A stretch of DNA of 64,000 bases. Origin: Kineosporia sp. A_224. Its GTDB lineage: Bacteria; Actinomycetota; Actinomycetes; Actinomycetales; Kineosporiaceae. The stretch covers positions 1 to 64,000 of the forward strand of contig NZ_MWLN01000202.1 in NCBI RefSeq assembly GCF_002198655.1, given 5' to 3'. The notes below the pieces were generated by a model. That model was given only the letters and a program-made list of their open reading frames with translations, had not been told where the DNA came from and searched no databases. The position numbers and the translations under genes were made by a program. Shown here in pieces: positions 60,851 through 63,404 of this stretch (positions within the stretch are counted from its first letter, which is position 1; each line of letters starts with the position of its first letter).

Positions 60851-60851
<1 letters not shown>
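58317..60851 (-). CDS. pheT: Phenylalanyl-tRNA synthetase beta subunit
   Basis: An 844-aa subunit. The N-terminal tRNA-binding (OB) domain, the B3/4 editing domain (about 215-380), B5 domain and a C-terminal FDX-ACB anticodon domain (PVPTFPLAKEDVALVVDEAV) are in order. The start ATG 60851 overlaps the pheS stop by one base (TGATG). Length is normal. Confidence 0.97.
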
Positions 60852-61966
<1,115 letters not shown>

Positions 61967-62110
61967 TCAGGTTTCGGGTGCCGCGCATCCGCGTCCGCCG
62001 GCCGGACCGACGGCTCGGCGGCGGCTGCCCCGAGTCTCCCAGATGTGCGGGGCTGCTCGCGCACGGGTTATGGGGGCGGGCTGGAGTGGGTGGCGGGCTG
62101 CGTGGCCACC

Positions 62111-62171
62111 GTCCTCTGGAGGGGTACGCACCCTTCCCGGACGTTGTCGCGTCCATCACCCGCCAGAGGAC
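62111..62171. repeat. 61-bp palindrome-ended repeat, copy 1
   Basis: It begins GTCCTCTGG and ends with its complement CCAGAGGAC. Inside, GGAGGGG/CCCTTCC and GGACG/CGTCC can form nested hairpins. It is the same length as the two other copies and nearly the same sequence in the first 30 bp. It lies 165 bp before pheS. Confidence 0.85.
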
Positions 62172-62193
62172 GCCCACTCACCGACGAGGCACC

Positions 62194-62254
62194 GTCCTCT
62201 GGAGGGATACGCACCCTTCCCGGACGTTGTCGTGTCGATATCCCGCCAGAGGAG
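62194..62254. repeat. 61-bp palindrome-ended repeat, copy 2
   Basis: It begins GTCCTCTGG and ends CCAGAGGAG (one change from a perfect complement). It differs from copy 1 at a handful of positions, mostly in the middle, and lies 22 bp from it. Confidence 0.85.
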
Positions 62255-62282
62255 GCCCGGCGCGAGCCAAGGACCCGACGAC

Positions 62283-62362
62283 GTCGATGAATGCGTGGAT
62301 GGTCGGGTCCTCCTGCACGTCCGAGCGTGCGAGCGGGCACAACCATCGACGCATCCATCGAC
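62283..62362. repeat. Long imperfect inverted repeat between repeat copies 2 and 3
   Basis: Arms 62283-62303 and 62342-62362 pair at 19 of 21 positions (GTCGATGAATGCG arm), enclosing a small GCACG/CGTGC hairpin. The whole could form an 80-nt stem-loop. It is unrelated in sequence to the 61-bp units. Confidence 0.7.
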
Positions 62363-62458
62363 GCGCCCGTCGTCGCGAACCTGGGCGGTATCCCCCGGGT
62401 CGCGCGGTCACCATCGGACGCGGGAAACGCACGTCTCGGCCCCGTGCTGCGGGTGCGC

Positions 62459-62519
62459 GTCCTGTGGAGGGATATGCACTCTTCCCGGGCGGTGAAGCGT
62501 GCAGGACCCGCCAGAGGAC
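62459..62519. repeat. 61-bp palindrome-ended repeat, copy 3
   Basis: It begins GTCCTGTGG and ends CCAGAGGAC, again 61 bp. The first 30 bp and the last 15 bp match copies 1 and 2, while the centre differs. It ends 7 bp from the RNA methyltransferase stop and could act as its terminator. Confidence 0.8.
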
Positions 62520-62525
62520 GGTCGG

Positions 62526-63404
62526 TCAGAGCGGGCGGTGGGCGCGGGCGGCCGCGTAGAGGCAGACCGTCGCGGCGGTGCCGAGGTTGAGGCTCTCCGC
62601 CTGGCCGTGGACCGGGACGCGGACGACGGCGTCGGCGAGCGCGCGGTCGGCCTCGGGCAGGCCCCAGGCCTCGTTGCCGAAGACCCAGGCCACCGGGCCG
62701 GCGAGGCCGGCGGGAGCGGCGGCCTCTGTGCCGGCGCCGGCGGGAGCGGCGGCGTCGGTACCGGCGTCGGTACCGGTACCGGTGCCGGCGGCACCGGAGC
62801 GGCGGGCGTCCTCGGCGGCGTCGAGGAGGGCGTCGAGGTCGACGTCCCCGGCGCCGTCCGCCGCGTAGACGGTCAGGCCGGCGGCGCGCAGGGCGGCGAC
62901 CGCGTCGGCGAGCGGGACGCCGGTGACAACAGGGAGGTGGAACAGGCTGCCGGCGGTCGACCGGACGCACTTGGGGTTGTGCACGTCGACGCTGGCGTCG
63001 GTGAGGACGACGGCGTCGGCGCCGGCGGCGTCCGCGGCGCGGATCACCGTGCCGGCGTTGCCGGGGTCGCGGACGTGCGCGAGGACGGCGACGAGCCGCG
63101 GTGCGCGGGCGACGACGTCCGCGAGCGGGACGTCGACGAGCCGGCAGACGGCGAGCAGGCCCTGCGGCGTCACCGTCTCCGTCATCGCCGCCATCACCTC
63201 GTCGGTGACGGGGACCGGCTCGACGCCGCGGGCGCGGGCCGCGTCGAGGATCGCGGTGTGCCGGTCGGCGGCGTCGTCCGTCGCGTAGAGCGCGAGGACC
63301 CCGGGACCGGCGACCGCCTCCCGGACGGCCTGCGGCCCCTCGACGGCGAACCGGCCCTCACGCACACGTGCGGAGCGCCCGGAGAGCCTGCGCACCGCCT
63401 TCAC
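62526..63404 (-). CDS. tsnR: TrmH/SpoU-family RNA 2'-O-methyltransferase
   Basis: About 292 aa or slightly more. An N-terminal substrate-binding domain (REGRFAVEGPQAVREAV) is followed by the knotted SPOUT domain: LAHVRDPGNAGTVIRAADAAGADAVVLTD (motif 1), AWVFGNEAWGLPE (motif 2) and VHGQAESLNLGTAATVCLYAA (motif 3). A Gly/Thr/Ala-rich insert lies between motifs 1 and 2. The start is unclear: GTG 63404 is the only standard start after the rplT stop, but the conserved NPRSDR stretch lies just upstream, so a non-standard start (for example CTG 63473) may be used. The position after rplT is conserved. Confidence 0.9.
   Translation of the reverse strand: MKAVRRLSGRSARVREGRFAVEGPQAVREAVAGPGVLALYATDDAADRHTAILDAARARGVEPVPVTDEVMAAMTETVTPQGLLAVCRLVDVPLADVVARAPRLVAVLAHVRDPGNAGTVIRAADAAGADAVVLTDASVDVHNPKCVRSTAGSLFHLPVVTGVPLADAVAALRAAGLTVYAADGAGDVDLDALLDAAEDARRSGAAGTGTGTDAGTDAAAPAGAGTEAAAPAGLAGPVAWVFGNEAWGLPEADRALADAVVRVPVHGQAESLNLGTAATVCLYAAARAHRPL

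What the first reader, a model, noticed from the sequence alone, without database searches (positions are those of the whole stretch)
62111..62519. Three 61-bp palindrome-ended repeats upstream of pheS
Copies at 62111-62171, 62194-62254 and 62459-62519 have identical length, near-identical first halves and complementary ends (GTCCTCTGG/CCAGAGGAC), with nested inner stems. The stem sequences are kept while the centre varies, as expected for a structured RNA, a protein-binding array or a short mobile palindrome. They fill the long gap between the RNA methyltransferase gene and pheST, so attenuation of pheST is one option. I do not recognise the family.
Basis: seen in the sequence. Interest (0 to 1): 0.6.

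Follow-up and report, generated by a model that had tools for sequence, protein, structure and literature searches.

The report
Dispersed palindromic repeats after gene ends
The three repeats before pheS belong to a family of about sixty short palindromes scattered through this bacterium's genome, nearly always just after the ends of genes; the family resembles known REP repeats, but its half-units also build large symmetric arrays, and an insertion sequence uses its centre as a landing site.

Summary
The repeats are real. The unit is 63 bp (62110-62172, 62193-62255, 62458-62520): two inverted, bipartite half-sites CGTCCTCTGGNGGGNNNNGCAC around a variable centre. They are not a pheS leader. 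A close relative (PheS 99% identical) has none there, and another has one. The own genome carries about 60 loci, and only three genomes of one Kineosporiaceae genus have the family. Copies mostly lie 0-25 nt after stop codons, avoid divergent gaps, and vary in presence between relatives. About a third of loci are symmetric arrays: extra half-sites pointing inwards around one central 63-mer, spaced 28-35, 40-44, 50-54 and 61-62 bp, as if phased to the DNA helix. Conservation follows the half-sites and the strict 63-bp length. Pairing is not preferentially repaired, and sense-strand G-U does not exceed A-C. This fits a protein-bound DNA repeat better than a structured RNA. By position, size and IS targeting it is REP/BIME-like. 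It is not a typical GTAG-REP/RAYT or CGTC-REP: no Y1 transposase is present and the half-unit has no hairpin of its own. All 11 visible ends of an IS30-like element lie in or beside a family member. What spreads or binds the repeats is unknown.

The parts
62110..62172 (.). Copy 1 of the 63-bp inverted repeat; half-sites 62110-62133 (+) and 62149-62172 (-)
62193..62255 (.). Copy 2 of the 63-bp inverted repeat, 20 nt from copy 1
62458..62520 (.). Copy 3 of the 63-bp inverted repeat, 5 nt after the stop codon of the SpoU-type methyltransferase gene (read on the - strand)
62278..62366 (.). A different, longer palindrome between copies 2 and 3; member of a second low-copy palindromic family
62526..63365 (-). 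SpoU-family RNA methyltransferase gene, upstream neighbour
61946..62060 (-). pheS-proximal leader, nearly invariant in three relatives; does not contain the repeat
60851..61945 (-). pheS

Best explanation
A lineage-specific, dispersed, REP/BIME-like family of extragenic inverted repeats. Each 63-bp unit is a pair of inverted ~22-bp bipartite half-sites at a fixed distance. It most likely acts as DNA: a dimer or larger assembly of an unidentified DNA-binding protein (a transposase or recombinase that spreads it, or a host protein) binds the pair, and further helix-phased half-sites extend the assembly into arrays. The repeats settle or survive behind stop codons, where they harm promoters least. 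SHOWN: family, copy number, half-site conservation, rigid length, spacing pattern, position, presence/absence differences between relatives. INFERRED: a binding protein, and spread by a transposase. UNKNOWN: its identity.
For: About 60 loci in the own genome; half-site 229 matches vs 1 control in own, 70 vs 3 and 25 vs 4 in two same-genus genomes, control level elsewhere. The inverted pair has exactly the 63-bp spacing in 86 of 91 cases, and none of 124 same-direction spacings falls at 36-39 or 45-49; for the 18 distinct long spacings per array, P = 0.00012 against a uniform null at 10.5 bp. In 18 orthologous pairs there is no length change; changes are 5.6% per base in the outer arms (most at position 11, the free N) against 30% at positions 15-18 and in the loop. 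50 of 63 clusters lie between same-direction or convergent genes and 2 between divergent ones. Tandem solo copies have median distance 11 nt to the upstream stop and 78 nt to the next gene. Presence varies between relatives: 21 of 26 tested loci occupied in G001, 9 of 29 in G002.
Against: No binding protein or mobilising enzyme was found. No clean target-site duplication at empty sites. Arms match slightly more than chance within a locus (z = 2.5 in solo copies), so some pressure or conversion keeping the two arms alike exists. Array spacings share descent, so the phasing statistic is not fully independent.
Confidence: 0.6

Rival explanations
1. RNA hairpins: bidirectional transcription terminators or mRNA-stabilising 3' structures selected for base pairing.
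For: Solo copies mostly sit 0-25 nt after stop codons and between convergent genes; each copy folds better than shuffles on both strands.
Against: No excess of G-U over A-C on the transcribed strand (31 vs 28 in tandem solos; 50 vs 57 overall). Of 10 pairs changed on both sides in orthologs only 3 are paired before and after. No T run follows the hairpins. Orthologous empty sites have strong hairpins no more often than other gene ends (14% vs 16%). Array spacing steps by helical turns.
Confidence: 0.2
2. Attenuator or leader element regulating pheST.
For: Three copies lie between the methyltransferase gene and pheS.
Against: Close relative G002 has no copy there and G001 has one; like units lie behind about 60 unrelated genes; no Rfam match over the gathering score.
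Confidence: 0.02
3. A MITE: deletion derivative of a DNA transposon with terminal inverted repeats, moved in trans by its parent. (This overlaps with the best explanation: it would name the binding protein as a classical transposase.)
For: Short, inverted ends, dispersed, polymorphic between relatives; bipartite ~22-bp half-sites resemble transposase end-binding sites (recalled, not tested).
Against: No parent element with these ends was seen; no recurrent target-site duplication. The one IS30-like IS linked to it has unrelated ends and uses the repeat as target.
Confidence: 0.25
4. Typical REPIN moved by a RAYT (Y1 tyrosine transposase).
For: Inverted doublet, extragenic, after gene ends, IS target - all as in REPs (PMC3116915, PMC3733652, PMC1525189).
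Against: No PF01797 match in any of the three genomes that carry the repeat, while 5 of 14 controls and one other genus of the family ring; no GTAG tag; half-units fold no better than shuffles.
Confidence: 0.05

Closest known systems
REP / BIME extragenic palindromes (general class; PMC1525189, PMC8266576)
   Same: Short dispersed palindromes (21-65 nt) in extragenic space, often in pairs or mosaics; targets of specific insertion sequences that always break them at one point.
   Different: E. coli REPs carry GTAG and each REP is a hairpin. Here the half-unit is not a hairpin, and arrays are mirror-symmetric around one centre.
CGTC-tagged REPs (Di Nocera et al. 2013, PMC3733652)
   Same: Unit begins with CGTC; inverted pairs; between convergent or same-direction genes, mostly within 20 bp of 3' ends; no dedicated transposase.
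   Different: CGTC-REPs have an 8-9 bp stem with a 4-5 nt loop inside each unit and were listed for five phyla that do not include Actinobacteria. The CGTC match may be chance.
REPINs / RAYT (PMC3116915)
   Same: An inverted doublet appears to be the conserved unit.
   Different: No RAYT (PF01797) in these genomes; no GTAG.
ISs that target palindromes: IS30 hot spots (PMC9333248); IS621, ISPpu9 and others in REPs (PMC1525189)
   Same: An IS with HTH_38 and rve domains lands at the palindrome centre.
   Different: Here every visible junction is in or beside this family, with a 3-bp duplication at the one copy where both ends are visible, against 2 bp reported for IS30.

Membership tests
REP (general class) | Palindromic repeat of about 21-65 nt in many dispersed copies | tested here: met
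   63 bp, about 60 loci
REP (general class) | Extragenic, mostly after gene ends and not between divergent genes | tested here: met
   31 same-direction, 19 convergent, 2 divergent, 3 overlapping; gene calls are from a home-made codon-usage caller
REP (tagged REP super-families) | Each unit forms its own stem-loop | tested here: not met
   235 half-units: mean MFE -7.59 vs -7.44 shuffled; only the inverted pair forms a hairpin
CGTC-tagged REP | CGTC at one end of the unit | tested here: met
   positions 1-4 = C 0.97, G 0.94, T 0.95, C 0.96
CGTC-tagged REP | 8-9 bp stem starting with A-T pairs, 4-5 nt loop, tail near CCA | tested here: not met
   No such stem in half-unit consensus or folds
REPIN/RAYT | Y1 (HUH) transposase in the genome, next to repeats | tested here: not met
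   PF01797 absent in G000, G001 and G002; found in 5 of 14 control genomes and in G007
REPIN/RAYT | GTAG (or variant) tag | tested here: not met
   half-site consensus CGTCCTCTGG
MITE | Terminal inverted repeats | tested here: met
MITE | Target-site duplication at insertion | tested here: inconclusive
   Empty sites found in relatives, but the flanking spacer turns over and no consistent duplication is seen
MITE | Parent transposon sharing the ends | tested here: inconclusive
   None found at the loci read; genome is in 242 contigs and whole-genome download was not available
Intrinsic terminator | Stable hairpin followed by a U run | tested here: not met
   Hairpin yes, U run no
Structured RNA (Rfam) | Match above gathering score | tested here: not met
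Structured RNA | Covarying pairs | tested here: not met
   3 of 10 double changes in orthologs keep pairing; paralog alignment close to shuffles on all measures
pheST attenuator | Conserved upstream of pheS in close relatives | tested here: not met

The most novel reading that the evidence does not exclude
The arrays are scaffolds for a lineage-specific nucleoprotein complex: an unknown DNA-binding protein assembles on inward-pointing, helix-phased half-sites that carry a positional code (central, adjacent and outer half-sites have different consensus sequences), so the repeat is a new kind of chromosomal binding array spread by its own or a hijacked recombinase.
Probability: 0.25. Interest if true: 0.7.

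Novelty: new variant of a known kind. Interest (0 to 1): 0.42.

Why it matters
Tagged REPs were catalogued in phyla that did not include Actinobacteria (PMC3733652), and CGTC-type repeats have no known mobiliser. Here is an actinobacterial family, variable in presence between closely related species, with a transparent two-half-site design, symmetric arrays, and an IS that lands in it. It gives a tractable case for asking what binds and spreads RAYT-less palindromic repeats, and whether helix-phased arrays have a role. It also removes a false lead: these repeats are not a phenylalanine-tRNA-synthetase leader.

Tried and rejected
Rfam scan: only sub-threshold chance hits. A first half-site pattern with a wrong gap length gave control-level counts and was discarded (corrected). 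Nested-insertion model (each new copy lands in the centre of an older one): attractive, but in the symmetric arrays the second-level arms sum to about 58 bp and the third-level arms to about 66 bp, and the consensus differs by position, so plain self-insertion does not explain the arrays. A 9-bp overlap at one empty array site looked like a target duplication but lies in GC-rich sequence and does not recur. Insertion into pre-existing terminators: empty sites are no richer in hairpins than other gene ends. A common neighbour gene: none among the ten array neighbours scanned. Phage link: one exact half-site match in 2.9 million viral contigs, chance.

Full report
WHAT IS THERE. The three copies are real and at the stated places. 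Each is 63 bp, CGTCCTCTGGNGGG....GCAC....(variable centre)....GTGC....CCCNCCAGAGGACG. They lie between a SpoU-family methyltransferase gene and pheS, both on the - strand; copy 3 starts 5 nt after the methyltransferase stop codon. Within the window nothing else matches.

A GENOME-WIDE FAMILY. A DNA search of the own genome gave 66 matches and a covariance model from 18 copies gave 123 matches, i.e. about 60 places seen on both strands. The half-site pattern at up to one mismatch occurs 229 times in the own genome against 1 for the reversed pattern, 70 vs 3 in G001 and 25 vs 4 in G002; in nine other genomes of the family and six of the order it is at or below control level. An exact-pattern scan of 84,980 species found several contigs each only for Kineosporia sp. 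R_H_3 and one groundwater actinomycete MAG; all other records had a single hit, as chance allows. I take these two to be G002 and G001 from matching contig lengths and genome sizes.

ANATOMY. I took 53 stretches around the copies and scanned them with a half-site matrix: 235 half-sites in 329 kb, none in shuffled DNA. They fall into 63 clusters: 32 simple inverted pairs and about 20 larger arrays of the type +++++-----, in which extra half-sites on both sides point towards one central 63-mer. The central pair has the same spacing in 86 of 91 cases. Same-direction spacings are 28-35, 40-44, 50-54, 61-62 and 74 bp, with one 24; none falls at 36-39 or 45-49. For the 18 distinct long spacings, the 10.5-bp periodicity has P = 0.00012 against a uniform null. 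Many arrays share spacer words such as GCTACGTCGG, so they have common ancestry and the statistic is not fully independent. Half-sites differ by position in an array: centre TGnnnnAAGCACCCCAAAAC, adjacent TGnCnnACGCAC, outer CGGGTnnCGCAC.

WHERE IT SITS. With a codon-usage gene caller (checked on the known genes of the window locus), 31 clusters lie between same-direction genes, 19 between convergent, 2 between divergent, 3 overlap a predicted gene, and the rest are at contig ends. Convergent gaps of at least 60 nt carry a copy in 18 of 24 cases, divergent ones in 2 of 36 (these loci were chosen because they hold a copy, so only the contrast is informative). Tandem solo copies are 11 nt (median) from the upstream stop and 78 nt from the next gene. 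This is the placement reported for REPs, 'next (<20 bp) to the 3' end' (PMC3733652).

COMPARISON WITH RELATIVES. Before pheS, G002 has no copy and G001 has one, while the ~115 nt adjoining pheS are nearly identical in all three. For other loci, orthologous flanks were located with a chain of gene-end anchors and fetched. G001 holds something at 21 of 26 loci, G002 at 9 of 29. At the empty sites the genes join through unrelated spacer sequence without a recurrent duplication. In 18 orthologous pairs the length never changes; the outer arms and GCAC stay, while positions 15-18 and the loop change at about 30%.

DNA OR RNA? Four tests speak for DNA: double changes in orthologs rarely keep pairing (3 of 10); on the transcribed strand G-U pairs do not exceed A-C (31:28 and 50:57); variable positions of the two arms are only weakly matched (z 2.5 in solo copies, 1.0 in big arrays); and spacing follows helical turns. 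Against: each copy does fold well, and the position after stop codons suits a terminator. I cannot exclude that copies also terminate transcription.

AN IS THAT USES THE CENTRE. Several arrays end at contig ends in the same sequence. It is the end of a ~1.26-kb IS whose transposase has HTH_38 and rve domains, IS30-like by its sequence (my reading). All 11 visible junctions lie in or at a family member: 10 at the 3-nt loop, one just outside a 63-mer. At the one copy with both ends in one contig the loop triplet GCA is duplicated. G001 and G002 lack this IS. IS elements that always land in REPs are known (PMC1525189), and IS30 prefers nearly palindromic hot spots (PMC9333248).

VERDICT. An actinobacterial, RAYT-less, REP/BIME-like repeat family with an unusual array architecture. 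The class assignment is firm as to what it resembles, but the defining stem-loop unit and tag structure of the known super-families are not met, so it is filed as a variant. A protein-bound DNA function is the best-supported mechanism but is inferred; the binder and mobiliser are unknown. The attenuation idea is rejected.

Noticed in passing
L207 (contig C38 of the own genome) 9-1271 and ends at C63, C136, C173, C180, C181, C192, C206, C222, C241: An IS30-like insertion sequence whose 11 visible junctions all lie in or beside the 63-bp repeat, 10 of them at its 3-nt loop; absent from both relatives.
   Followed up: yes
window 62278-62366; also C178:26005-26074, C81:43670-43744 (own), G001 C464:931-1005, G002 C270:7875-7947: A second, low-copy palindromic family (core GATGGTTGTGTCCTCCTGCACG...CGTGCAGGAGGACACAACCATC), several times lying between or next to 63-bp repeats; in G001 it is an extra ~115 nt between two repeats that adjoin in the own genome.
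   Followed up: partly
window 61946-62060 (- strand): The ~115 nt upstream of pheS are almost identical in three species although coding DNA differs by several per cent; this is the likelier place for pheS regulation.
   Followed up: no
orthologous copies, e.g. L109 vs L173: In some orthologous copies the flanks are identical while the centre of the repeat differs at several nearby bases, as if centres were replaced or converted.
   Followed up: no
L097 3000-3096 vs L190 and L150: One copy in the own genome has an extra appended half-site that both relatives lack, possibly a recent array-growth step.
   Followed up: no
L099 vs L184; L106 vs L186: Remnants of a single half-site at orthologous places in G001, suggesting decay or partial loss of copies.
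   Followed up: no
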